Source of the DNA: a virus
Virus record (IMG/VR): IMGVR_UViG_3300031873_000043
Span: 1 to 24,381 of that record
Strand: one strand, 5' to 3'
Length of the DNA: 24,381 bases
A program made the position numbers and the translations under genes. Shown here piece by piece: positions 5,035 through 24,381 of this stretch. Positions within the stretch are counted from its first letter, which is position 1; each line of letters opens with the position of its first letter. Under the pieces are notes generated by a model that ran no database searches, was not told the DNA's origin, and saw only the letters and a list, made by a program, of their open reading frames with translations.

Positions 5035-5280
5035 ATGACAGAAGAGACGACTCAAATCAAAGACGTGAATCATGCTTATGAGATTCTCGAAAGAAATATG
5101 GAAGAGGGAACAGTGGTTGTAAAAATTAATAAAGGAATTCTTGGCGCAATGTCTAACCAATTAAAGGCATCGTCAGATAAAAAAAGGAAGGGAAGCAGTA
5201 TACTTCGTCGATTGGGATACGACTTAGGGGATTGTGGAGATTTTCTCTACAGTAAACAAAATCGGGGAAGTGCGGTTTAA
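5035..5280 (+). CDS. small hypothetical protein
   Basis: 81 residues, ATG preceded by a very good GAAGGAG Shine-Dalgarno. The N-terminal half (VNHAYEILERNMEEGTVVVKINKGILGAMSNQL) is helix-strand-helix; the C-terminal half is basic, then irregular. No family is recognised. An HNH homing endonuclease gene starts four bases after its stop, so the 3' end of this gene may have been reshaped by that insertion; the last ~20 residues (DLGDCGDFLYSKQNRGSAV) look less regular. Confidence 0.6.
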   Translation: MTEETTQIKDVNHAYEILERNMEEGTVVVKINKGILGAMSNQLKASSDKKRKGSSILRRLGYDLGDCGDFLYSKQNRGSAV

Positions 5281-5284
5281 AAGA

Positions 5285-5980
5285 ATGTTAGATTTAAAAG
5301 ATAAAAAATTTAATAGACTAACAGGTATCGAACCTACAAATAAAAGAAAAGACAATAAAATAGTTTGGCGATTTAAATGCGATTGTGGGAACGAATTTGA
5401 GACCGTTGGAAGGGAAGTTAAAAATGGTCACACAAAAAGTTGTGGGTGTTTAAATATAGAACGAATAACCGAAATGGGAAAAGCCAATAAAATTCACGGT
5501 CATTCCAGCAACGGCATAATATCTCCGACATATATGGTTTGGGATAGTATGAAACAAAGGTGTGAAAATCCTCTTCATAAATCATATAAGAATTATGGCG
5601 GTCGAGGAATTACTGTTTGCGACAGGTGGATAGAGCCAAATGGTCAAGGATTTATGAATTTTTTAGAAGATATGGGAGAAAAACCAAAAAATAAACAATT
5701 AGATAGAATTGATAATAATAAATTAATAAATAGTTATTCTCCAGAAAATTGTCGTTGGACAACATCCAAGGCAAACAATCGCAACAGAAGAAGTAACCAT
5801 CTCATGCCATACAAAGGAAAGGAAATTTGTATAGCAGAAGCGTCAGAAATAACCGGAATCCATAAGGCTACTATTAGACGCAGATTAGCCGCCGGTTGGA
5901 CTCCCGAAGAAACCTTAACAATCCCACCAGACACAAGACATAATTGGAGAATCAAAAATGAATTACCAAGAAGCAAGTGA
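5285..5980 (+). CDS. HNH homing endonuclease, zinc-ribbon type
   Basis: 231 residues from the ATG at 5285; an in-frame GTG at 5234 lies inside the upstream gene and is rejected. Residues 2-13 are the DLKDKKFNRLTG opening shared by the paralogues in this window. Cys32, Cys34, Cys53 and Cys55 form a zinc-ribbon-like set. Residues 84-160 hold the nuclease region (VWDSMKQRCENP, NYGGRGITVCDRW, LDRIDN at 139-144, NCRWTT at 155-160). Residues ~171-212 are a NUMOD1-like recognition helix module ending in PEETLTIP. The end overlaps the next gene by 23 bases, and its TGG AGA codons supply that gene's Shine-Dalgarno. Confidence 0.92.
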   Translation: MLDLKDKKFNRLTGIEPTNKRKDNKIVWRFKCDCGNEFETVGREVKNGHTKSCGCLNIERITEMGKANKIHGHSSNGIISPTYMVWDSMKQRCENPLHKSYKNYGGRGITVCDRWIEPNGQGFMNFLEDMGEKPKNKQLDRIDNNKLINSYSPENCRWTTSKANNRNRRSNHLMPYKGKEICIAEASEITGIHKATIRRRLAAGWTPEETLTIPPDTRHNWRIKNELPRSK

Positions 5981-9315: not shown

Positions 9316-9984
9316 ATGAATAGGTTCATAGATTTAACCGGACAAAGATTTGGAAAACTTATCGTGGATAAATATATAGGTAAAAACAAATGGAGACATA
9401 TCAGGTGGCTATGTTCGTGTGATTGTGGGAATAAATCCGAAATAAGCGGATGTAATTTATTGTCTGGTAAAACTAAAAGCTGTGGATGTTTTGCGAAACA
9501 AATTAAAACAAAACATGGATACGCCAAGAGAAATAAAAAATTAAGAGTTTACCAAATATGGTGTGATATGAAGAAAAGATGTAATAATAAAAATGCTCAA
9601 TTCTATAGAGACTATGGCGGCAGAAATATTAAGGTTTGTTATAGATGGGCAAATAAGAAAAATGGATTTCAGAATTTTCTAGAAGATATGGGTGAACCAC
9701 CATCAACAAAACATCAAATTGACAGAATTAATAATAGTCTAGGATATTACAAAGAAAATTGTCGATGGGTTACATCCAAAGAAAATAATAGAAACAGAAG
9801 AGATAATCGTGTATTCAAATATAATAATAAAGATCAGTGCGTTTCAGCATTGGCCGAAAAATATAATATTAAAAGATCAACATTGTCATCAAGAATAAAT
9901 AGAGATAAACTTTCAATAGAAGAAGCTTTAACAATTCCTATAAATAAACAACAGCGGAGAAAGAAAAATGCCAGAAGAAATTAA
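9316..9984 (+). CDS. HNH homing endonuclease, zinc-ribbon type
   Basis: 222 residues; its ATG abuts the TAA of the ATPase gene. Opening FIDLTGQRFGKL, zinc-ribbon cysteines 33/35/37 and 56/58, nuclease region with YQIWCDMKKRCNN, DYGGRNIKVCYRW (99-111), QIDRINN (134-140) and ENCRWVTSKENN (147-158), then a NUMOD1-like module from about 165. The tail QQRRKKNARRN contains CGG AGA, whose GGAG (9956-9959) is the Shine-Dalgarno for the DUF3150 gene starting inside this gene at 9968. It interrupts the ATPase/DUF3150 pair. Confidence 0.92.
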   Translation: MNRFIDLTGQRFGKLIVDKYIGKNKWRHIRWLCSCDCGNKSEISGCNLLSGKTKSCGCFAKQIKTKHGYAKRNKKLRVYQIWCDMKKRCNNKNAQFYRDYGGRNIKVCYRWANKKNGFQNFLEDMGEPPSTKHQIDRINNSLGYYKENCRWVTSKENNRNRRDNRVFKYNNKDQCVSALAEKYNIKRSTLSSRINRDKLSIEEALTIPINKQQRRKKNARRN

Positions 9985-10912
9985 ATTATTTGATCTTGGA
10001 TGTTTAATAAATTTAAAAATCGGCTATTGGAGTGCTCGCAAAATGGTTTCACGAGCCGACTTAATAAGCGTTGGCCTTGATCCAGACGCATTGCCGAAAG
10101 ATCTTGTGAACTATGGGCGCAAATTATTGGTTTCTAAAAATGAAATTCAAGCCATAAGCAAGGTCGAACAACGTGCCCGTTCATATCTTGCAAAATATAG
10201 TGCTCCTTTTGAAGCGGCTAATTGTTTCTTCGTTCCAAATAAAATGATTCCAGATCTAGAACACAATCTTAAATGTTTTAGAAAAGATTTTTTTGATGTA
10301 GTAGACAGCTTTATTTCTCGTTTTAATGACCTGAAAGACGAAGTAAAGAAACAGCACCCTGAATTTTTTGAAAAATGCTTAAGACAATTCTATCCGTCAA
10401 CAGCAGAATCTTTGAGGTCAAGATTTTATTTTGAGTGGCATATGTTCACAATCAGTAATATTAATTCAATACAACAAACCTCTTCTGAAGAAATTGAATT
10501 AAAAAGAGAAAAATTGCAGAAAGAAGCAAATAAGTTTGCAGAAAATTATATTCAAACTATGAGAAAAGAAGTTGTTGATTTTTGTACTTTGATGGAATGC
10601 AGAGTTAATGGAAAAATTTATGGTGATGAAAGTGATCCAAAACAGCTTACAGGAAGAAGTTTAGCATTTTTTAGAAAATATGTAACAAAATTCCGAAACA
10701 TGAATATATTCGGCGACAACGAAATTGAAAAAATGCTTATCGAATTTCAAAACAACTATTTGGATCTCGGAGTTACATCAAAAAGTTTTGACAGCGCCGC
10801 AATGAAGACGGCGGTATCACTATCTTTGTCAAGCATCCGCAAACAGGCGTCTCTTGAGGAAGGGGGGGGCTCGCAGTTTATCAACTCTCTCAAGAGAAAG
10901 GTCATTATCTAA
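9968..10912 (+). CDS. DUF3150 family protein
   Basis: 314 residues. The opening (LGCLINLKIGYWSARKMVSRADLISVGLDPDALP…VNYGRKLLVSKNEIQAI…VEQRARSYLAKYS…FFVPNKMI) matches DUF3150, a phage and bacterial family of unknown function often found beside AAA ATPase genes. The middle is helical (residues ~100-200), consistent with a coiled-coil or adaptor role. Near the C-terminus a G8 tract (10862-10869) encodes three glycines; the frame is kept, and the protein ends LKRKVII. An HNH remnant begins at the stop codon. Its job is probably tied to the ATPase at 7747, but this is inference from association. Confidence 0.85.
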   Translation: MPEEIKLFDLGCLINLKIGYWSARKMVSRADLISVGLDPDALPKDLVNYGRKLLVSKNEIQAISKVEQRARSYLAKYSAPFEAANCFFVPNKMIPDLEHNLKCFRKDFFDVVDSFISRFNDLKDEVKKQHPEFFEKCLRQFYPSTAESLRSRFYFEWHMFTISNINSIQQTSSEEIELKREKLQKEANKFAENYIQTMRKEVVDFCTLMECRVNGKIYGDESDPKQLTGRSLAFFRKYVTKFRNMNIFGDNEIEKMLIEFQNNYLDLGVTSKSFDSAAMKTAVSLSLSSIRKQASLEEGGGSQFINSLKRKVII

Positions 10913-11135
10913 TAACAAGGGGTACTTTCCAGGTAACTGGAGATGGGCAACAAACAAACAACAACATAGAAACATGAGAACTAACATAAACATTAATGGA
11001 TTGTGTTTAAAAGATCATTGCAAAAAATTTAATCTAAATTATCATACGATAATGACAAGGATAGATACATACGGATATTCTATGGAAGAAGCTTTAACAA
11101 TACCAATAAGAAAATATAATAGGAGAAAAAAATAA
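10911..11135 (+). pseudogene. remnant of zinc-ribbon HNH homing endonuclease (C-terminal third)
   Basis: The reading starts NNKGYFPGNWRWATNKQQHRN and continues with the NUMOD1-like segment (LKDHCKKFNLNYHTIMTRI) and the typical EEALTIPIRKYNRRKK ending. This equals the last ~75 residues of the paralogues at 9316, 12809 and 20790 (compare NNKGYYPNNWRWATPKEQ). There is no start codon or zinc ribbon, so about two thirds of the gene is deleted exactly at the DUF3150 stop. The retained AGGAG in the Arg-Arg codons (11121-11125) still supplies the Shine-Dalgarno of the DUF1257 gene at 11135, a reason it may have been kept. Confidence 0.88.
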
Positions 11136-11548: not shown

Positions 11549-11817
11549 TGAAAGTGGAATGTTATTTTAAAAACTAGGGTTTTGAATTTATTTATGAACG
11601 ACATAAAAATCTGTACCAATCTATTCTTTTAATTATCGGTAATAAAAAATGGAAATCCAAAAAACATATATGATTTTTAATAAAAAATATTTCAAAGATC
11701 TGAGCAATAAACATTTTTACATTAAATATTTACCATTCAATATTATGCACACTGGGGTTGACATAAACCATAAAAATATTCCATTTATGTTTACTTTACA
11801 TATGTAGGGAGAATAAA
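11548..11817 (+). pseudogene. probable decayed small gene
   Basis: An ATG overlapping the DUF1257 stop (TAATG) opens MKVECYFKN and then meets TAG at 11575-11577. The same frame goes on GFEFIYERHKNLYQSILLIIGNKKWKSKKHI to a TGA at 11671. A further ORF (11670-11807, MIFNKKYFKDLSNKHFYIKYLPF…) follows in another frame and ends at TAG. Together they look like one ~86-residue gene broken by a nonsense codon and a frameshift. The 11670-11807 ORF could also be a separate small gene. The segment has no gene that is clearly intact. A Shine-Dalgarno for the next gene lies at its end (GGGAGAATAAA). Confidence 0.4.
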
Positions 11818-12009
11818 ATGCAAAAAATATTATATTTTAATAAGGGGGGGTATTGCGTTACCGAAAGAGATCAGAATACTATTTTTACTATGTTTTGTGA
11901 ATTGCCAAAAGATTTTATTCCTGAAGGAATACCTATTGAAGAATTTGTTTGTAATCCAAAATTTAGAATAACAAATGGTCGCCATGTAAATAAAGGAAAT
12001 GTATGTTAA
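11818..12009 (+). CDS. small hypothetical protein
   Basis: 63 residues (MQKILYFNKGGYCVTERDQNTIFTMFCELPKDFIPEGIPIEEFVCNPKFRI…), Shine-Dalgarno GGGAGAA upstream. A G7 tract at 11844-11850 encodes Lys-Gly-Gly near the N-terminus. No family is recognised. A second ATG-containing frame overlaps its 3' end, just before a GIY-YIG gene. Confidence 0.5.
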   Translation: MQKILYFNKGGYCVTERDQNTIFTMFCELPKDFIPEGIPIEEFVCNPKFRITNGRHVNKGNVC

Positions 12010-12015
12010 AATTTT

Positions 12016-12687
12016 ATGTTTATTAAAGGTTATATCTCTGGTATTTATAGAATAACCTGTTCATCAACAGGAAAATTTTATATAGGAAGTGCTATTAATC
12101 TTAAAAGACGGTTCGAGTTTCATTTATCTAGATTAAAAAACGGAAATCATATCAATACCTATTTACAAAACTCATGGAATAAATATGGAAAAGAAAATTT
12201 TAAATTTGAAATAATTGAAATTGTTTATGATATAAAAAAATTATCAATAAAAGAACAATTGTGGTTAGACCAAACAAAATGTTATAATTCAAATATTGGA
12301 TTCAATATTTCTAAAAATACTATTACTCCAATGTTGGGCCGGAATCATACAAGAGCAACAAAAGAAAAAATAAGCAATTCTAAAAAAGGAACAAGGCTCA
12401 CCAAAGAACATAAATTAAAATTAAGTATTGCTTTAAAGGGACGACACCGACCCAGTTTAGTTAAGGAAAAAATTAGAAAAGCACAGATTGGTATCCCGAA
12501 ACCACAATCAAGTCAACCAGGAAGTAAGCACGGAGCAGCTACAATAAACGAAAAAACAGCGATAGACATTATAAGAGATCATAAAAAAGGATTGTCTTAT
12601 AAGGAATTAGTTATAAAATATGGAGCCAGCTATAAAACAATTTGGTTATTGACACATAAAATAACATGGAAACATATCAAGGAATAA
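12016..12687 (+). CDS. GIY-YIG homing endonuclease with NUMOD3 repeats
   Basis: 223 residues. GIY at 9-11 and YIG at 22-24 in GKFYIGSAINLKRRF, the Arg region at 30-32, and the Glu-containing KEQLWLDQTKCYN (about residues 78-90) make a complete GIY-YIG nuclease core. Residues ~112-165 hold three short repeats (KEKISNSKKG, KEHKLKLSIALKG, KEKIRKAQIG), typical NUMOD3 DNA-binding units. Residues ~184-222 are a helix-turn-helix (LSYKELVIKYGASYKTIWLL). It has no Shine-Dalgarno. It ends just before the orphan GMP reductase 5' fragment, whose Shine-Dalgarno (AAGGA) lies in its last codons. Confidence 0.93.
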   Translation: MFIKGYISGIYRITCSSTGKFYIGSAINLKRRFEFHLSRLKNGNHINTYLQNSWNKYGKENFKFEIIEIVYDIKKLSIKEQLWLDQTKCYNSNIGFNISKNTITPMLGRNHTRATKEKISNSKKGTRLTKEHKLKLSIALKGRHRPSLVKEKIRKAQIGIPKPQSSQPGSKHGAATINEKTAIDIIRDHKKGLSYKELVIKYGASYKTIWLLTHKITWKHIKE

Positions 12688-12692
12688 AATAA

Positions 12693-12809
12693 ATGAGCGA
12701 TTTAGTCCGATCATATAATTTTAAGGACGTAGCAATTTGCCAAAAAGAAAATATTTGTAATAGTAGGCTAGACGCAAAAAATAGAGGGGAAATAAGGGAA
12801 TATAGGTAA
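12693..12809 (+). pseudogene. orphan 5' fragment of the GMP reductase gene
   Basis: The 38-codon ORF encodes MSDLVRSYNFKDVAICQKEN followed by ICNSRLDAKNRGEI and then REYR and a stop. It aligns without gaps to the start of the complete GMP reductase at 13435 (SYKFSDIAIYQKENICKSRLDTKIKSEI): about 18 of 28 residues identical, after which the two differ. It is therefore a leftover first piece of the gene, separated from the rest by the HNH gene (12809-13435) that starts on its stop codon (TAATG). It has its own Shine-Dalgarno. Alternative: a chance match; the length and order of shared motifs make that unlikely. Confidence 0.88.
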
Positions 12810-13435
12810 TGGGCAAATTTATTGATTTAACGGGATTAAAATTTGGAAGATGGACAATTCTTAAACAAATAAACACCAACAAAAAGAAATCTAGATGGAA
12901 ATGTGAATGTAGTTGCGGAATCATAAAAAATATAGACGGATATAGTTTAAGAACAGGAGATTCAAAAAGTTGCGGATGCCTGCACAAAGATATAATGACC
13001 AAACATGGGCTTAGCAATTCTCATATTGATAAAATATGGAAATCTATGATTCAAAGGTGTACCAACCCCAAAAATCCAAGATATAAAGATTACGGAAATA
13101 GAGGCATTACGGTTTGCAAAAGGTGGTTGCCTAAAAATAACGGATTTATTAATTTTCTTAATGACATGGGACTACCGCCAAGCAAGAAGCATCAGATAGA
13201 TAGAATTGATAACAATAAAGGATATCATAAAAAGAATTGTCGATGGAGCACCAATAAAGAAAATAATTACAACAGAAGAGATAGCCATATGTTAACATAT
13301 AAAGGTAAAACACAATGTATTGCAGCCTGGGCCGAAGAATATAATCTTCCTTACGATACACTTCGGACAAGAATAAGGAGGGGTTGGAATATTGATAGAG
13401 CATTAAACGAACCCATCAGGAGAAAAATAAAATAA
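12809..13435 (+). CDS. HNH homing endonuclease, zinc-ribbon type, within the GMP reductase locus
   Basis: 208 residues. Opening FIDLTGLKFGRW, zinc ribbon (KCECSCG … KSCGC), nuclease region (IDKIWKSMIQRCTNP, DYGNRGITVCKRW, QIDRIDNNKGYHKKNCRWST) and NUMOD1-like segment (KTQCIAAWAEEYNLPYDTLRTRIRRGW) ending NEPIRRKIK. The ATG overlaps the stop of the 5' GMP reductase fragment, and the TAA overlaps the ATG of the complete gene. Its AGG AGA codons (AGGAG 13418-13422) supply the Shine-Dalgarno for the complete gene. The position suggests it targets this gene's 5' region. Confidence 0.93.
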   Translation: MGKFIDLTGLKFGRWTILKQINTNKKKSRWKCECSCGIIKNIDGYSLRTGDSKSCGCLHKDIMTKHGLSNSHIDKIWKSMIQRCTNPKNPRYKDYGNRGITVCKRWLPKNNGFINFLNDMGLPPSKKHQIDRIDNNKGYHKKNCRWSTNKENNYNRRDSHMLTYKGKTQCIAAWAEEYNLPYDTLRTRIRRGWNIDRALNEPIRRKIK

Positions 13436-15501
13436 TGTTTAAAAAATCATATAAATTTTCTGACATAGCAATTTATCAAAAAGAGAATATTTGCAAAAGT
13501 CGGCTTGACACAAAAATAAAAAGCGAGATAATTCGCGGAGTAATCCGTCCACTTCCCCTTTTGGCAGCGAATATGTCAACAGTCACGAATGCGGAATTCT
13601 CGATAGGGCTTTATAGGCTTGGGGCTATGGGGGTTTTACACAGAGCTTTTCCAAATACAGATGATTATATATCGGAAACAAAAAAAATAACAAAGGAAAT
13701 TCCCTCTGTTGCGGTTTCCATTGGAATAAAAGATTCAGATTATATATTGGTTGAAAAATTAATAAAAGCTGGATCCAACATTATTTTCGTCGATGTAGCT
13801 CATGGTTTTAATAAATATGCATTACAAATGTGCCAACATATAAAAAAATTCTATCCAACAATAAAAGTTGTCGCCGGAAATACTATTAATCCTGATATGA
13901 TAGGGATGTTCAATGATTATGTAGATGCAATAAAAATCGGCATAGGTGGTGGTAATTCCTGTTCGACGGCGACAGTAGTTGGTTGTACAAAAAATCAATT
14001 TTCTGCTATCTATGATTTAAAAGAAATCTCACAAAAATATGGTATGCCAATCATTAGTGACGGGAACATTCGTTGCCCCGCCGATTTCACCAAAGCTATC
14101 GGGGCAGGAGCTAGTTGTGCTATGGCTGGTAGTATATTCGCCAGATGCCCAGAGAGTGCTTCAGAAACGATAGAAATTGATGGGATAAAGAAGAAAATTC
14201 TGGCGGGCATGTCATGTTATAGCGACGACACAGAAATATTAACCATCAATGGATGGAAAAATTTTTCAGAAATAAAATTATCTGACGATTTAGCAACTTT
14301 AAATACAGAAACAAAATTAATGGAATTTCAAAAACCAACAAATATTTTTAATTATAATTATAACGGGGAAATGATAAATATAAATCATAAAGCTATTGAT
14401 TTATTAGTAACACCAAATCACAGAATGTATGTTGCTAAACGAGCAAGAATTAAGGATGGATATAAAGAAAAATTTAAATTCGTTAAGGCGGAACGGTGTT
14501 GTAAGGAAAATTTTAAGTATCAAAAAATATGCGGATGGAAGGGAGAATATTCCAAATTTTTTAAGATACCCGATGTTGTCTCTGGATATAAAAATAAATA
14601 TAAGAAAATAGGAACAAATTTTCTGACAGAAGAATGGATTGATTTTTTTGGATTCTGGTTAGCAGAAGGGTGGGCAAATAAAAGAATATCAAAATCAAAA
14701 AAACATATCAGTTATAATCCTAATCATTTTGTGTATTCCATAAGTATTTCAAATAATAATAAAAAATTGATAAATCATTATGTAACCTTATTAAGAAAAT
14801 ATAATATTGGTTCCTTTGTAAGAAAAAGGAATAAAAATTATGAACTTACAATACAAAACATGCCCCTTTGCAGTTATTTGATGAAATTTGGGAAGGCTCA
14901 TGAAAAATTTATTCCGAAAAAAATTAAAAATCTACCGACTAAATTATTAGAGATTTTAATAAATTCAATATTTCTCGGTGACGGTTGTAAAAACAGAAAT
15001 TCTATAACTAGTTCTTCCACTAAATTTATAGACGATATATCAGAGATATGTATAAAATGTGGATTAACTCCAACAATTCACTTGAATCATCCAAAGGGAT
15101 CTTTAGGAGAAATTAATGGGAAAAGTTTCGTTAGAAAATATGATTCATTTTCTGTTTATGTAGGTAAATATTGGCATAACCCCACCATCCTCCCAAAACA
15201 CTATAGTTTTATAGATTATAGTGGCAAAGTGTATTGCGCAGAGGTTCCTAATGGAATATTATGTGTAAGAAGAAACAATAAATATACGTGGTGTGGCAAT
15301 AGTGAATATGTCCAGAATAAATGGAAGGGTGGTTTAAAACCAGGAACTTCGGCAGAGGGCAAATTAATTCATCTTGACATAGGAGAACCAGTAGAATCAC
15401 TTTTAAATAGGTATGCGGGGGCATTAAGAAGCGCGATAAGTTATGCCGGTTTTGATAACATTCAAGATTTTCAGAGGGGGTGTGAATTTCTTCTGATATA
15501 G
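13435..15501 (+). CDS. guaC: GMP reductase (IMPDH/GMPR family) with an intein
   Basis: 688 residues: 260 extein residues, a 362-residue intein, then 66 extein residues; the spliced protein is 326 residues, the normal GMP reductase length, without CBS domains. It should reduce GMP to IMP with NADPH. LLAANMSTVTNAEF (42-55), the IKIGIGGGNSC active-site loop with catalytic Cys176, ISDGNIRCPADFTKAIGAG and, after splicing, GMSSEYVQNKWKGG…SAEGKLIHLDIGEPVESLL-NRYAGALRSAISYAG match GuaC. IMPDH is the alternative; the C-terminal EGK…G.V…..GGLRSA-like block favours GMPR. Phages use such enzymes to balance purine pools. The intein sits in the conserved GMS/S motif. The 5' end was rebuilt after an HNH insertion. 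Confidence 0.9.
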   Translation: MFKKSYKFSDIAIYQKENICKSRLDTKIKSEIIRGVIRPLPLLAANMSTVTNAEFSIGLYRLGAMGVLHRAFPNTDDYISETKKITKEIPSVAVSIGIKDSDYILVEKLIKAGSNIIFVDVAHGFNKYALQMCQHIKKFYPTIKVVAGNTINPDMIGMFNDYVDAIKIGIGGGNSCSTATVVGCTKNQFSAIYDLKEISQKYGMPIISDGNIRCPADFTKAIGAGASCAMAGSIFARCPESASETIEIDGIKKKILAGMSCYSDDTEILTINGWKNFSEIKLSDDLATLNTETKLMEFQKPTNIFNYNYNGEMININHKAIDLLVTPNHRMYVAKRARIKDGYKEKFKFVKAERCCKENFKYQKICGWKGEYSKFFKIPDVVSGYKNKYKKIGTNFLTEEWIDFFGFWLAEGWANKRISKSKKHISYNPNHFVYSISISNNNKKLINHYVTLLRKYNIGSFVRKRNKNYELTIQNMPLCSYLMKFGKAHEKFIPKKIKNLPTKLLEILINSIFLGDGCKNRNSITSSSTKFIDDISEICIKCGLTPTIHLNHPKGSLGEINGKSFVRKYDSFSVYVGKYWHNPTILPKHYSFIDYSGKVYCAEVPNGILCVRRNNKYTWCGNSEYVQNKWKGGLKPGTSAEGKLIHLDIGEPVESLLNRYAGALRSAISYAGFDNIQDFQRGCEFLLI
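14215..15300 (+). mobile_element. LAGLIDADG intein in GMP reductase
   Basis: It spans residues 261-622. Block A starts CYSDDTEILTINGW with Cys1. Block B is LLVTPNHRMYV (TxxH type, about 324-333). Two LAGLIDADG endonuclease helices are FFGFWLAEGW (404-413) and ILINSIFLGDGC (507-518). Block F is VYCAEVPNGILCVRRN, and block G is TWCGN followed by Ser of the C-extein. The Cys1, terminal Asn622 and Ser+1 needed for splicing are present; the penultimate residue is Gly rather than the usual His. Ends: tgt at 14215-14217 and aat ending 15300. It can home by cutting intein-less guaC genes. Confidence 0.93.
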
Positions 15502-15510
15502 AGACTAAAT

Positions 15511-15834
15511 ATGTTAAATAAAGATACAGTATTCTGTTTTACTGGCAAAGGCCCATTCTCTCGTAACAAAATGACAGATATAGCTATCAAGGCTGGAGCA
15601 TCGGTCACAAAATCTGTCACTAATAAAACAACTATACTAGTTATAATGGATATGAATAGCCAATCTATCAAGGCAAAAAGGGCTCGTGAAAATGGCATAG
15701 ATTTGATTGGCCCACAAACATTTTTTGTAATGTGTAATATAAAAAATAATACGTATACTGAGCATAAAGCTGAGTTTGAACAAAAAATTATTGCAGAACA
15801 AACCAAAAAACTATTGAGGAAAATAATTCTATGA
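15511..15834 (+). CDS. stand-alone BRCT domain protein
   Basis: 107 residues. The first ~75 form one BRCT domain: DTVFCFTGKGPFSRNKMTDIAIKAGASVTKSVTNKTTILVIMDMNS-QSIKAKRARENGIDLIGPQTFF, with the FTGKG...R......I...GA.v..sVt..t..LV and K...A.. G...I....F core. Only a short charged tail follows. In bacteria such domains sit at the end of NAD-dependent DNA ligase. Here it is separate, 6 kb upstream of an ATP-dependent ligase; it may recruit repair proteins to DNA ends. It lies ten bases after the GMP reductase gene. Confidence 0.85.
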   Translation: MLNKDTVFCFTGKGPFSRNKMTDIAIKAGASVTKSVTNKTTILVIMDMNSQSIKAKRARENGIDLIGPQTFFVMCNIKNNTYTEHKAEFEQKIIAEQTKKLLRKIIL

Positions 15835-16070
15835 AAATTAAAAAAATAGGAAACACAACGAGGGTGTGGTTGTCCCAAAACGACACGTTTAAATGGAGTC
15901 GCAGACCTAATGCGCAATGGCCCTGTTCTACAATAAGCGACAGAAGAGTATATGTAGAATTAAATGGTGCAAACGATATCGTTAATGTAAAAATAAATGG
16001 GAGAGATGCAAAAGATCTAGATTCCCACGAACTGAGATGTTGTCTTAATGATTTGACGAAAGGAAAATAA
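15831..16070 (+). CDS. conserved small phage/bacterial protein
   Basis: 79 residues. The pattern TRVWLSQNDTFKWSRRPNAQWPCSTISDRRVYVEL-NGANDIVNVKINGRDAKDLDSHEL matches a widespread small protein of unknown function (W..rp...WPCS.l...r........dG......D..E). The start overlaps the BRCT gene's stop by four bases. Confidence 0.75.
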   Translation: MKIKKIGNTTRVWLSQNDTFKWSRRPNAQWPCSTISDRRVYVELNGANDIVNVKINGRDAKDLDSHELRCCLNDLTKGK

Positions 16071-19330: not shown

Positions 19331-19519
19331 ATGAACAGCATTTTAAATCAATCCGCCTGCAAGAAATTTATATTAGCTAAATTTTCTAGTATGCGTCCCG
19401 GTATGCCAATAACAAGAGTTTCTAAGGACGCAATAGAAAAATTAGAGGCAAGATTACGAGCATGGATTATAGACGAAGTGCAAAAGGCACCAAGCATAGG
19501 GAAAACATTTAAATTATAA
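19331..19519 (+). CDS. small conserved phage protein, possibly histone-fold-like
   Basis: 62 residues: ILNQSACKKFILAKFSSMRPGMPITRVSKDAIEKLEARLRAWIIDEVQKAPSIGKTFKL. The shape (long N-terminal helix, RVSKDA..KLEARLRAWI long helix, short tail ending PSIGKTFK) resembles a small phage family with histone-fold appearance. DNA-binding is inference only. Strong TAGGAG ribosome site 6-11 bases upstream. A non-coding structured segment follows. Confidence 0.6.
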   Translation: MNSILNQSACKKFILAKFSSMRPGMPITRVSKDAIEKLEARLRAWIIDEVQKAPSIGKTFKL

Positions 19520-19524
19520 AATAT

Positions 19525-19686
19525 GGGCCGTCCGGTGTGCGGGGAAATGCACACACTTGGTTTATGATATTTGGCTACCGCCATAAGGGGTGTGATAAAT
19601 GGCCACACTGGTTATCATGAGTTAAGTTCTAGGTCGCCACAGGGTTGGTGCGTCTGCCACTAGACGAGCCTTTTAAGGCACGGCCC
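19525..19686 (+). ncRNA. GC-rich, highly foldable non-coding segment (putative structured RNA)
   Basis: This 162-base stretch is visibly richer in G and C than its surroundings and has no usable ORF. Its ends, GGGCCGT (19525-19531) and ACGGCCC (19680-19686), pair perfectly. Nested inside are GTGTGC/GCACAC (19535-19540/19549-19554, 8-base loop), a 9-pair helix with several G-U pairs (19561-19569/19613-19621) enclosing GGTGTG/CACACT (19589-19594/19604-19609), and CGTCT/AGACG (19651-19655/19662-19666). It lies between a small gene and the gene at 19713. It is not a tRNA: the T arm is absent. The class is unknown; it could be a phage ncRNA, a riboswitch or a ribozyme. Confidence 0.6.
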
Positions 19687-19712
19687 TTCACTTTTTTAAA
19701 AAAGGATAATAC

Positions 19713-20024
19713 ATGAAATTTAAAATGCTTACTCGTCAACAAGTATTAAATCGTCTTCGTTCACATCTTTTATTATTTCAATGGGAATGTGGGTGGTATT
19801 TCTCCCCACAAGAAAGAGTTGGAAGTATAGACGCTAACTGGTTGTTGAAAAATGAATATGTTATATTATTGCGCCAAAATACTGTTTGGCCTGTTCTTGG
19901 TCAATACGGAAAAACCCATCTTTGTCCCATCCTAGACACAGAAAAATCACAATCTTTCAAAAATAGAAAAATGATAGAGGAGAACGTAAACAATGAAAAA
20001 ACAAAATGTATACGAAGAGCATGA
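19713..20024 (+). CDS. hypothetical protein
   Basis: 103 residues (MKFKMLTRQQVLNRLRSHLLLFQWECGWYFSPQERVGSIDANWLLKNEYVILLRQNTVW…). The middle is aromatic; the tail is charged. A ribosome site AAAAAAGGATAA precedes the ATG. It is the first gene after the structured segment, so it could be regulated by it. No family is recognised. It overlaps the next gene by 32 bases. Confidence 0.55.
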   Translation: MKFKMLTRQQVLNRLRSHLLLFQWECGWYFSPQERVGSIDANWLLKNEYVILLRQNTVWPVLGQYGKTHLCPILDTEKSQSFKNRKMIEENVNNEKTKCIRRA

Positions 20025-20268
20025 AAAATTAAAAAGTGTAAAAAATGAATCGGAAATAATTGGACAATTTCTGGAATGGCAAAAAACAAAAGATAGAGAT
20101 TTGTGTACATTTGATTCTAAGTTTGATGAATTTACACCAGTGTTTCATGGATCAATTGAAAAAATCCTTGGTGAATATTTTGAAATAGATCTTAATAAAC
20201 TAGAAAAAGAAAAACAACAAATGATAGAGGGGTTAAGATGTGTCAATGGGGCAAATCCAAAAAAGTAA
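19993..20268 (+). CDS. conserved small phage protein
   Basis: 91 residues. VYEEHEKLKSVKNESEIIGQFLEWQKTKDRDLCTFD…FTPVFHGSIEKILGEYFEIDLNKLEKEKQQMIEGLR matches a common phage protein (EHEKL..v...S..IG.FL.W........…….LL..YF.ID...LE.EK..ML..L). Mostly helical; function unknown. GGGGTTAAG near its end is the ribosome site for the gene starting at 20238. Confidence 0.75.
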   Translation: MKKQNVYEEHEKLKSVKNESEIIGQFLEWQKTKDRDLCTFDSKFDEFTPVFHGSIEKILGEYFEIDLNKLEKEKQQMIEGLRCVNGANPKK

Positions 20269-20480
20269 AACTTTGTCAACCAAAAGAAATTAGTAAAAGA
20301 ACTGTTGTTGATGTGGATTATTGCATAGCCGATATTGTCCAAAGATTAAATGATAAAAAAATTAGAACACTAGGATGCTGTTGTGGACATTTTAAAAATC
20401 CTGGTGAAATTATTATAGAAGATAAAGATAAAAAGATAATATTTATGTCAATAGAAGAAGCTAAAAAATTGGGAGAATAA
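20238..20480 (+). CDS. conserved small phage protein with CCCGH motif
   Basis: 80 residues beginning MCQWGKSKKVKLC. The pattern MC.WG.....V..........…D.CIA.IV..L....I.T..CCCGH....GEIII matches a phage/bacterial small-protein family. Cys2, Cys13 and the CCCGH cluster may bind zinc. The function is unknown. It overlaps the previous gene by 31 bases. Confidence 0.75.
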   Translation: MCQWGKSKKVKLCQPKEISKRTVVDVDYCIADIVQRLNDKKIRTLGCCCGHFKNPGEIIIEDKDKKIIFMSIEEAKKLGE

Positions 20481-20481
20481 A

Positions 20482-20721
20482 ATGACAAACTGGAAAAGAG
20501 AAATAAAATTAAAACACATTCTAAATTCTAGACCAGAACTTATGGAAGAAGACGATCTTCCTATAGATATTTCAGAAACAGTTTGTGAAATTCTAGAAAA
20601 AGATCCGGAATTAAATATCTTTTCCGATGAGATAAGATTATGTCAAACAGTAGAAGAATTTAATGGGGAAATGGATAACGTATATGACTATTGCGATGGT
20701 AATAAAATTTTAATAAATTAA
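20482..20721 (+). CDS. conserved small phage protein
   Basis: 79 residues (NWKREIKLKHILNSRPELMEEDDLPIDISETVCEILEKDPE…VEEFNGEMDNVYDYCDGNKILIN). An acidic helical protein resembling a phage family with NWKR.I.LKH near the start and a DN.YD....N.I.I end. Function unknown. Followed by a 68-base spacer that has a Shine-Dalgarno but no gene behind it. Confidence 0.65.
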   Translation: MTNWKREIKLKHILNSRPELMEEDDLPIDISETVCEILEKDPELNIFSDEIRLCQTVEEFNGEMDNVYDYCDGNKILIN

Positions 20722-20789
20722 ACGCGGATAATTGTGTATAAATCAAAGGAGTAAATCATCTGATAAATATAATTTATAAAGGGAAATAA

Positions 20790-21749
20790 GTGGCTGAACA
20801 ATGTGGTATTTATAAAATCACATGTAAAAATAATAGCAAATTCTATATAGGAAGCAGTATAAATATTAATAGAAGACTCAGGGATCATATTAGGTTGCTA
20901 AAACGGAATAAGCATAAAAATAAACGTTTACAAGATTCTTGGGATAAATACGGTGAGGAAAATTTCAAATACGAGATTGTTGAAACCATTAATGATGTAA
21001 AACAATTACACATAAGAGAAAAATGGTGGATTGATAATACAAATTGTTATAAAAAAGAAATAGGTTTTAATATTTCTTCTGATCCTCGCAATCCTCCAAC
21101 GGGAGGATTTATTGATTTAACAGGACAGAAGTTTGGAAAATTGAAACCAACCAAATATTTAGGTGAATCTAAATGGTTGTGTTTATGTGATTGTGGAAAA
21201 GAAAAAATAATTAATAGTAAAAGTTTTAAAAATGGTCACACCAAAAGCTGTGGTTGTCTATATAAAGACAATAAAAATGGTTTAAAACATGGTTATTATA
21301 CGAACAAAAAAACATCAAAAATACATAAAATATGGAAACATATGATAGAAAGATGCACAAACCCTAATGTAAAACAATATAAAGATTACGGAGGACGCAA
21401 AATAAGGGTCTGCTATAGGTGGTCTAATAAAAATCCAAAAGGGTTTGAAAATTTCTATAAAGATGTGGGAGATCCACCAAAAGGAAAATCTCTCGATCGT
21501 GCAAATAATAATAAAGGATATTATCCGAATAATTGGAGGTGGGCAACTCCGAAAGAACAAGCCAATAACAGAAGAAACAGTATTTTAATAACATTTAATA
21601 ATAAAACTCAATCACTCCAAAAATGGGCGATAAAATATAATATTAATCCCAATAGATTATGGCGCAGATTATATCAATTAAACTGGCCTATAGAAAAGAC
21701 TTTAATAACACCAATAAAAAAAATAAAAAGGAGATTAAATGATAATTAA
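20790..21749 (+). CDS. GIY-YIG / HNH double-nuclease homing endonuclease fusion
   Basis: 319 residues with two complete nuclease parts. Residues 1-~96 are a GIY-YIG domain: CGIYKITCKNNSKFYIGSS with GIY 6-8 and YIG 19-21, Arg28/29, and REKWWIDNTNCYK with Glu78. Residues ~107-319 are a zinc-ribbon HNH protein of the local family: FIDLTGQKFGKL, cysteines 131/133/135 and 154/156, YGGRKIRVCYRW, DRANNNKGYYPNNWRWATPKEQ (236-257), NUMOD1-like segment. A GTG start follows a TAA directly. The tail has AGG AGA, giving AGGAG (21729-21733) for the ligase gene, which it overlaps by 11 bases. Fusion of a GIY-YIG nuclease to an HNH nuclease is uncommon. The shared frame is unbroken. Confidence 0.92.
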   Translation: MAEQCGIYKITCKNNSKFYIGSSININRRLRDHIRLLKRNKHKNKRLQDSWDKYGEENFKYEIVETINDVKQLHIREKWWIDNTNCYKKEIGFNISSDPRNPPTGGFIDLTGQKFGKLKPTKYLGESKWLCLCDCGKEKIINSKSFKNGHTKSCGCLYKDNKNGLKHGYYTNKKTSKIHKIWKHMIERCTNPNVKQYKDYGGRKIRVCYRWSNKNPKGFENFYKDVGDPPKGKSLDRANNNKGYYPNNWRWATPKEQANNRRNSILITFNNKTQSLQKWAIKYNINPNRLWRRLYQLNWPIEKTLITPIKKIKRRLNDN

Positions 21750-22876: not shown

Positions 22877-23521
22877 ATGAAATTTGTTGATTTAACAGGA
22901 TTAAAATTTAACAAATTAACAGTTATAAAATATGTTGGTAAAGATAAGTGGGGTAATGCAAAATGGCTATGTAGATGCGATTGTGATAAAACTAAAATTG
23001 TTTTAGGATTAAGTTTGAAAACCGGAAATACCAAAAGTTGCGGATGTTCTTCATCTGAAATGATTTCTAAAAAAATAACAAAGCACGGGATGAGTAACTC
23101 TAAAACATATCATGTGTGGGAAGCTATGATCCAAAGATGTACAAATCCAAAATGTAAAGCATATAAAAACTATGGAGAAAGAGGAATCAAGGTTTGCAGG
23201 AGATGGTCAAATAAGAAAAATGGGTTTGAAAATTTTTACGCAGATATGGGTAATCCACCAAAAGGAATGTCTCTTGATAGAATAGATAACGATGGAGATT
23301 ATTGTGCAAAAAATTGCCGATGGGCCACAAGAAAAGAGCAAGCTAGAAATCAACGAAAAAATCTTTTAATTACATTTAATGGGAAAACACAATGTTTATC
23401 GGCCTGGGCCGAAGAATATAAAATTCCATATGATGTTCTGTATGATAGAATAATTATAAAAAAGTGGCCAATAAAAAGGGCCTTAACGACTTGTGTTGGA
23501 AAATATATTAAAAAGATATAA
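22877..23521 (+). CDS. HNH homing endonuclease, zinc-ribbon type
   Basis: 214 residues. FVDLTGLKFNKLTV opening, zinc ribbon (LCRCDCD … KSCGC), nuclease region (YHVWEAMIQRCTNP, NYGERGIKVCRRW, SLDRIDNDGDYCAKNCRWAT) and NUMOD1-like segment (KTQCLSAWAEEYKIPYDVLYDRI). Between the ligase stop and this ATG lies AAGGAAGG followed at good spacing by GTG (22873), which opens only a five-codon frame overlapping the HNH start. The next gene abuts its stop and has no Shine-Dalgarno of its own. This copy's tail (GKYIKKI) lacks the Arg-Arg ribosome site. Confidence 0.92.
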   Translation: MKFVDLTGLKFNKLTVIKYVGKDKWGNAKWLCRCDCDKTKIVLGLSLKTGNTKSCGCSSSEMISKKITKHGMSNSKTYHVWEAMIQRCTNPKCKAYKNYGERGIKVCRRWSNKKNGFENFYADMGNPPKGMSLDRIDNDGDYCAKNCRWATRKEQARNQRKNLLITFNGKTQCLSAWAEEYKIPYDVLYDRIIIKKWPIKRALTTCVGKYIKKI

Positions 23522-23989
23522 ATGAAAAAAAAACATAAAAAAATATTGGCGATATTAATTGGGGCTCCCGCTAGTGGAAAATCATATTATTGCGCACACA
23601 CATTATATAATTACTATAGAATCTCACAAGATGAACAAAAGAAGGGCCATTACAAGAAATTCCTAGAAACATTGTTGTCTGGCCAAGATTTGATTGTAAT
23701 TGACCGTATGAATTTTAACTTTGTTCAACGTTTACAATACGTCTTACCGGCACAAAAACTTAAATATAAAATAATGTATTATTTTTTTACTTGCCCGGAC
23801 AATATCCTCCTTCAAAGGATGAGAGATAGGAAGGGGCATCCTACAGTTAAAAGTAATGATTATAATAAGCATAAAGAATTAATAGAATTTTTCAAGAATA
23901 ATTATGAAGAACCTGGAAGTCTTGAAGACTTTGATATGACAGAAATTAAGACGGGGGAAGAAAATGACCAAAGAAATCAAAAAACTTAG
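23522..23989 (+). CDS. P-loop kinase, polynucleotide-kinase-like
   Basis: 155 residues. Walker A GAPASGKS at 14-21 after a short basic start. YRISQDEQKKGHY (about 33-45) and LIVIDRMNFNFVQR (57-70) fit the T4 Pnk N-terminal kinase or AAA_33 class, which phosphorylates 5'-OH ends of RNA or DNA. The lid region LLQRMRDRKGHPTV has the usual Arg residues. There is no phosphatase domain in this protein; a PPP-type phosphatase is encoded shortly downstream. An RNA ligase end lies at the left edge of the window. The start has no Shine-Dalgarno. Confidence 0.8.
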   Translation: MKKKHKKILAILIGAPASGKSYYCAHTLYNYYRISQDEQKKGHYKKFLETLLSGQDLIVIDRMNFNFVQRLQYVLPAQKLKYKIMYYFFTCPDNILLQRMRDRKGHPTVKSNDYNKHKELIEFFKNNYEEPGSLEDFDMTEIKTGEENDQRNQKT

Positions 23990-24200
23990 AACTTATGAGA
24001 AAAAATTAAAAGATAAGTTGTCAATATTTGAACACCAATTATCTCTATTAGAACACACCGAAGTAGACGGTAAGCCAACCGATGTACATAGACTTAAATG
24101 GTTGTCTAAAATGGTTTCTGAAATACAAAATGTATGTGATAAAACGAGTACCATTTTATATAATATGATTCGATCCCATAAAGAAACTTATACAAAATGA
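23964..24200 (+). CDS. small coiled-coil protein
   Basis: 78 residues, nearly all helical. Residues 3-35 (KEIKKLRTYEKKLKDKLSIFEHQLSLLEH) have heptad-like Leu spacing. GGGGGAAG upstream is its ribosome site. It overlaps the kinase gene by 26 bases and the phosphatase gene by 4. No family is recognised. Confidence 0.6.
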   Translation: MTKEIKKLRTYEKKLKDKLSIFEHQLSLLEHTEVDGKPTDVHRLKWLSKMVSEIQNVCDKTSTILYNMIRSHKETYTK

Positions 24201-24381
24201 GAAAATTAGCTAAAATTTTAGATTTATCGCATTTAAAAAATAAAAGATTCTTAGTAATCGGTGACATACATGGAACATTCGACCAACTAATAGAGCTTTT
24301 ACAAAAATGTAATTACAATAAAGAAAAAGATATTATAATAGCGACAGGAGATCTTGTAGATCGTGGCCCAAGTTCTGTAGA
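24197..24381 (+). CDS. PPP-family serine/threonine-type metallophosphatase (partial)
   Basis: Start of a gene that runs off the right edge; 61 codons visible. GDIHG at residues 22-26 and GDLVDRG at 51-57 are the first two metal-binding motifs of the PPP family (GDxHG, GDxxDRG), as in lambda phosphatase. The GNHE motif would lie outside the window. The ATG overlaps the previous TGA. Substrate class (protein or nucleotide) cannot be decided from this part. Confidence 0.9.
   Translation, partial: MRKLAKILDLSHLKNKRFLVIGDIHGTFDQLIELLQKCNYNKEKDIIIATGDLVDRGPSSV

What the first reader, a model, noticed from the sequence alone, without database searches (positions are those of the whole stretch)
19525..19686. 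GC-rich structured non-coding element
Seen: 162 bases with strong G+C contrast to the AT-rich genome, no ORF, a perfect 7-pair closing stem, and at least four internal helices, two with perfect 5-6-pair stems. AT-rich phages keep high GC only where structure demands it. It is one of the few non-coding spaces here. It matches no RNA class I can name: tRNA, hammerhead and tmRNA were considered and do not fit. A T6 tract lies shortly after the closing stem.
Basis: partly seen in the sequence, partly recalled or inferred. Interest (0 to 1): 0.8.

Follow-up and report, generated by a model that had tools for sequence, protein, structure and literature searches.

The report
New structured RNA in phages
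A 162-base stretch between two phage genes is a real folded RNA: a related phage carries the same fold with matching base-pair swaps, at another spot in its genome, but no known RNA family fits and its job is unknown.

Summary
Bases 19525-19686 are non-coding and GC-rich (54% against 32%), with a perfect 7-bp closing stem and several hairpins; predicted energy is -61.1 kcal/mol (z -2.2). No tRNA/tmRNA is found, no Rfam family matches at E<=5, and BLAST finds nothing in phage or plasmid records. A covariance model built from this one sequence found one homologue among the virus records searched (about 110 in all): a related phage (G012; L113:9614-9757), next to its RNA-repair kinase gene, matched over full length. 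A reciprocal model recovers the window copy (35 bits, E 1e-6). Of 44 shared base pairs, 18 are changed on both sides and none is broken, so this is a conserved structured RNA. The best consensus is a four-way junction with conserved loop sequences (CACAGGGU, GUGCGUCUGCCA) and a U6 tract exactly 5 nt after the closing stem. The RNA sits at different places in the two genomes, before unrelated ORFs, and is absent from close relatives (empty site). It behaves as a movable accessory module. Most likely it is a free-standing trans-acting phage RNA; cis-acting roles are not excluded. Function is unknown; RNA-repair genes lie nearby.

The parts
19525..19686 (+). conserved structured RNA, whole element (P1 to P1')
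   Evidence: Full-length CM match to L113:9614-9757 (24 bits with R1; reciprocal 35 bits with R2); covariation
19525..19534 (+). P1 5' strand GGGCCGU plus inner CG; pairs with 19680-19686 and 19665-19666
   Evidence: Homologue pairs GGGUUAUCCG/CGGAUAACUC; 3 pairs changed on both sides
19535..19554 (+). P2 hairpin GUGUGCG GGGAAA UGCACAC
   Evidence: Homologue AUCUA UUUU UAGAU; 3 pairs changed on both sides
19555..19627 (+). P3 arm, 15 bp (19555-19569/19613-19627) carrying two apical hairpins
   Evidence: 7 pairs changed on both sides, none broken
19581..19588 (+). P3a mini-hairpin CC AUAA GG
   Evidence: 2 pairs shared with the homologue, invariant; weak
19589..19609 (+). P3b hairpin: 6 bp, 9-nt loop AUAAAUGGC (homologue AUCAAUAGG)
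   Evidence: 2 pairs changed on both sides, 1 on one side; equal stem and loop lengths
19628..19664 (+). P4 arm: UCUAG (19628-19632)/CUAGA (19660-19664), enclosing P5
   Evidence: Homologue GCUGU/ACAGC: 3 of 5 pairs changed on both sides, 0 broken; this helix was not in the model that found the homologue. Not favoured by energy for the window alone
19635..19652 (+). P5 hairpin CG[C]CAC AGGGUUG GUGCG
   Evidence: Paired bases identical in the homologue (CG[U]CAC AGGGUACUAA GUGCG); conserved, not covarying
19653..19659 (+). strictly conserved internal loop UCUGCCA
   Evidence: Identical in both copies
19668..19679 (+). P6 hairpin GCCUUUUAAGGC, inserted in the 3' strand of P1; absent from the homologue
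19692..19697 (+). U6 tract, exactly 5 nt after P1 in both copies, just before the next Shine-Dalgarno
   Evidence: Window TTCAC-TTTTTT; L113 AAATA-TTTTTT; T6 runs are scarce on the + strand: 18 in 24 kb and 9 in 13 kb
19331..19519 (+). upstream 62-aa ORF, conserved in relatives, where it is not followed by the RNA
19713..20024 (+). downstream 103-aa ORF, no relatives found; not homologous to the ORF after the RNA in G012

Best explanation
The element encodes a discrete, conserved, structured phage RNA of about 145-162 nt. SHOWN: its helices are kept by compensatory changes in a related phage, its loops CACAGGGU and GUGCGUCUGCCA are unchanged, the + strand folds better, and it sits at different places in the two genomes and is missing from very close relatives. 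INFERRED: it is made as part of the accessory-gene transcript that reads through it (or from a nearby phage promoter), with P1 closing its ends and the U-tract marking or helping to form its 3' end. It folds into a four-way junction (P1-P4) that places the P3 tip and the P4/P5 loops side by side, and acts in trans by presenting these conserved loops to a host or phage protein, as an accessory takeover or counter-defence RNA. The idea that it works with the RNA-repair genes nearby (kinase, phosphatase-RNA ligase, RlaP-like), for example as a decoy for host RNA-cutting defences, is only a guess from the neighbourhood. That this is a conserved structured RNA: about 0.95. That it acts in trans: about 0.5.
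For: Homologue found by a single-sequence CM, full length, the only match at E<=1 in the first 61 phage records; reciprocal match with E 1e-6; no match with the two-sequence model in 20 whole bacterial genomes at E<=1 nor in 296 more at E<=0.01. 18 of 44 shared pairs changed on both sides, 0 broken; 16 such pairs on the CM alignment against 8.0 +/- 1.9 in shuffles and 0-2 when slid. The homologue folds with z -3.20, 0/200 shuffles. G-U pairs and better energy favour the + strand. Position: after the 62-aa gene in the window; in G012 the homologue of that gene is at L113:5103-5297 but the RNA is 4.3 kb away, after the kinase gene. The following ORFs are unrelated. Empty site in G001/G002.
Against: Only two copies are known, so the consensus rests on one comparison. 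There is no expression evidence and no convincing promoter. The energy model prefers an alternative 3' domain for the window by about 10 kcal/mol. In both copies a Shine-Dalgarno and ORF follow directly, which would also suit a cis-acting leader. The link with RNA repair is neighbourhood only: the kinase directly precedes the RNA in G012 but lies 4 kb away in the window, and relatives with the same repair genes lack the RNA.
Confidence: 0.5

Rival explanations
1. Cis-acting leader or attenuator: the RNA senses a ligand or protein and decides between two 3'-domain folds (P4 arm or the CGUCUG/UAGACG hairpin), controlling termination at the U6 tract or access to the Shine-Dalgarno of the next ORF.
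For: U6 at a fixed 5 nt after P1 and a Shine-Dalgarno right behind it in both phages. Two mutually exclusive pairings of the same 3' strand can be drawn in both copies, with opposite energy preference.
Against: Downstream ORFs are unrelated and the RNA changes place among genes. The alternative hairpin has no double change and a U.C mismatch in the homologue (sequence).
Confidence: 0.25
2. Cis-acting element of the long transcript itself, not tied to one gene: a processive antitermination RNA (works like phage HK022 put or the EAR/eps element) or an mRNA-processing or stability structure.
For: It lies inside a tightly packed same-strand gene run, a few bases after a stop codon and before a Shine-Dalgarno, and is not linked to one gene.
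Against: No Rfam match to any such element at E<=10. It is absent from close relatives that carry the same flanking genes.
Confidence: 0.15
3. Self-cleaving or otherwise catalytic RNA that trims the polycistronic transcript.
For: Compact multi-arm fold with strictly conserved internal-loop bases next to covarying helices.
Against: No match to any ribozyme family in Rfam; I recognise no known catalytic core.
Confidence: 0.06
4. Chance similarity: a GC-rich foreign fragment that happens to fold, with a chance CM hit in G012.
For: The first hit had only 24 bits, E 0.001 for one record, with about 60 records searched.
Confidence: 0.04

Closest known systems
ROOL and GOLLD RNAs (phage/prophage ornate RNAs)
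   Same: Structured, non-coding, encoded in phages and prophages, function unknown (PMC12286853, read).
   Different: GOLLD members often exceed 800 nt and ROOL is also a large RNA, while this is about 145-162 nt; they often lie near tRNA islands, while ARAGORN finds no tRNA in this window; no Rfam match to either.
phi29 packaging RNA (pRNA)
   Same: Similar length (174 nt, from my own knowledge), phage-encoded, possible loop-loop contact (GGU in the P5 loop with ACC before P3a).
   Different: No Rfam match; no packaging gene recognised in the window; four-way, not three-way junction; the loop contact is untested.
Processive antitermination RNAs (HK022 put, EAR)
   Same: Cis RNA structures inside phage or polysaccharide operons without a fixed downstream gene (own knowledge).
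   Different: No sequence or structure match in Rfam at E<=10.
Phage T4 RNA-repair system (Pnk + Rnl1 against PrrC)
   Same: The neighbourhood carries a kinase, a phosphatase-RNA ligase of the T4 Rnl1 family and an RlaP-like gene; T4 Pnk/Rnl1 repair tRNA cut by a host nuclease (PMC3014915).
   Different: I know of no structured RNA of this kind in the T4 system; this is a neighbourhood, not a membership.

Membership tests
any Rfam 15 family | covariance-model match at or above the gathering score | tested here: not met
   No match at E<=5 in the whole window; only sub-threshold chance matches at E<=10 for either copy
tRNA / tmRNA | cloverleaf or tmRNA detected by ARAGORN | tested here: not met
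   0 genes
ROOL / GOLLD | match to the Rfam model; near tRNA islands | tested here: not met
   No Rfam match; no tRNA in the window
new family defined here (window + G012) | homologous fold with compensatory changes | tested here: met
new family defined here (window + G012) | perfect four-way junction P1-P4 | tested here: inconclusive
   Drawn in both and P4 covaries, but the window sequence alone prefers another 3' domain
cis-regulatory leader (riboswitch-like) | conserved downstream gene | tested here: not met
   Following ORFs unrelated; position differs
cis-regulatory leader (riboswitch-like) | ligand- or protein-dependent control of the next gene | not testable with these tools
   Needs reporter or probing experiments
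trans-acting small RNA | accumulates as a discrete transcript | not testable with these tools
   No transcript data; promoter-like sites no more frequent than in shuffles

The most novel reading that the evidence does not exclude
A movable phage RNA that is part of the phage's RNA-repair and counter-defence kit: a four-way-junction RNA that baits or senses host RNA-cutting defences, possibly by switching its 3' domain between two folds.
Probability: 0.1. Interest if true: 0.85.

Novelty: new variant of a known kind. Interest (0 to 1): 0.52.

Why it matters
Phages keep almost no non-coding DNA, so a conserved, mobile, structured RNA in the accessory region points to a selected function, probably in the contest with the host. 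It adds a compact RNA family, with a testable fold and invariant loops, to the few phage structured RNAs known (ROOL, GOLLD, pRNA), none of which it matches.

Tried and rejected
BLASTN of either copy against phage records, and of the window copy against plasmids: only chance fragments. Exact-pattern scans of viral and genome contigs with loop or motif patterns: chance hits only, apart from G012. The downstream 103-aa and 91-aa proteins as baits found no relatives in viral contigs by pattern scan (the 91-aa one has a relative in G004). Two-sequence model R3 in ~100 virus records, 20 bacterial genomes and 296 more: no third member. The RNA-ligase neighbourhood as bait gave 7 loci, none with another copy. 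Rejected: protein-coding (a 41-aa frame across the G012 copy is not open in the window copy); rRNA, RNase P and intron fragments (no Rfam match).

Full report
CHECK. Bases 19525-19686 lie in a 193-base gap between a 62-aa ORF and a 103-aa ORF, all genes on the + strand. GC is 54% in a 32% window; it is the highest-GC segment, though a coding stretch at about 17051 comes close. The closing stem is perfect. MFE is -61.1 kcal/mol, z -2.23, 4 of 200 shuffles as good. No tRNA/tmRNA, no Rfam match at E<=5 in the window or above threshold in focused searches. By folding alone this would be suggestive only; a composition-corrected sliding scan of the window did not pick it out.

RELATIVES. The window is a 24-kb metagenomic phage record. 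DNA ligase finds relatives. The two closest (G001, G002) match 11808-16070 at 98-99% but lack 19520-21729: there the 62-aa gene runs straight into DNA ligase. The RNA therefore lies in a variable accessory block.

HOMOLOGUE. A covariance model from the window sequence alone (R1) matched one place in the first 61 phage records: G012:45580-45723 = L113:9614-9757, full length, 24 bits, E 0.001 for that record. A model from that copy (R2) recovers the window element with 35 bits, E 1e-6 for 37 kb. The homologue folds with z -3.20, 0/200 shuffles.

COVARIATION. On a hand alignment of eight helices, 44 pairs are present in both: 18 changed on both sides, 2 on one side, 24 the same, none broken. On the model-fitted alignment 16 pairs are changed on both sides, against 8.0 +/- 1.9 in shuffles and 0-2 when the partner is slid. 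That alignment was fitted to the structure, so it leans towards it; but helix P4 (UCUAG/CUAGA; GCUGU/ACAGC) was not in R1 and still shows 3 of 5 pairs compensated. P5 is sequence-identical and says nothing for or against pairing.

ANATOMY. P1, P2, P3 and P4 meet with no unpaired bases in the homologue; in the window the same junction can be drawn, with the extra hairpin P6 bulged from P1. P3 ends in two stacked hairpins (P3a, P3b; equal stem and loop lengths for P3b). P4 holds P5 and the invariant loop UCUGCCA. A possible contact GGU (P5 loop) with ACC (before P3a) is conserved but does not covary: a guess. In both copies a U6 tract follows P1 after exactly 5 nt and is followed by a Shine-Dalgarno. 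In G012 the flanks AUAUUU/AAAUAU extend P1 down to the U tract.

AMBIGUITY. The energy model prefers, for the window, two separate hairpins (CGCCA/UGGUG and CGUCUG/UAGACG) over P4/P5 by about 10 kcal/mol; in G012 P4 is preferred (pair probability 0.8) while P5 is not (0.13). The alternative hairpin does not covary and has one mismatch in G012. Both may form in turn, but two sequences cannot settle this.

CONTEXT. Gene order around the ligase is shared, but the RNA has changed place: behind the 62-aa gene in the window; in G012 behind the kinase gene, 4.3 kb from its 62-aa homologue. The following ORFs are unrelated. The neighbourhood encodes a kinase, a calcineurin-like phosphatase fused to a T4-Rnl1-type RNA ligase, and, 17 kb upstream in the window, an RlaP-like ORF. 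Relatives with the same repair genes lack the RNA, so co-operation is not shown.

SEARCH FOR MORE. No third copy in about 110 virus records, 20 whole bacterial genomes or 296 further genomes of one phylum, although these searches use pre-filters and models of one or two sequences. The family appears rare or confined to little-sampled phages.

VERDICT. A real, conserved, structured phage RNA that belongs to no family in Rfam. Its independence from any gene and its mobility favour a free-standing trans-acting RNA (about 0.5) over gene-linked leaders (0.25) or general cis elements (0.15). Function is not shown.

Noticed in passing
13435-15501: IMP dehydrogenase/GMP reductase-like gene apparently interrupted by an intein with a LAGLIDADG domain.
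   Followed up: no
2294-2629 and 2559-2987: RlaP-like ORF (RNA repair pathway polymerase-beta family) overlapping a pyrimidine dimer DNA glycosylase ORF.
   Followed up: partly
23522-23989 and 24197-24381: RNA-repair pair: kinase, then the start of a calcineurin-like phosphatase fused to a T4-Rnl1-type RNA ligase, cut by the contig end; full-length relatives in G001, G002, G004 and G012.
   Followed up: partly
5234-5980, 9316-9984, 10854-11135, 12016-12687, 12809-13435, 20790-21749, 22877-23521: Many HNH-like and GIY-YIG homing-endonuclease-like genes; blastn shows repeated similarity among them and with relatives.
   Followed up: no
20482-20721: 79-aa ORF with a homologue at L113:7799-8035, on the other side of DNA ligase: another accessory gene that changed place like the RNA.
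   Followed up: no
15511-15834: Single BRCT-domain protein, conserved in G012 at 70% identity.
   Followed up: no
L023:14863-14936: ARAGORN reports a tRNA with a four-base anticodon (acaa) in relative G003, in a tRNA-bearing stretch.
   Followed up: no
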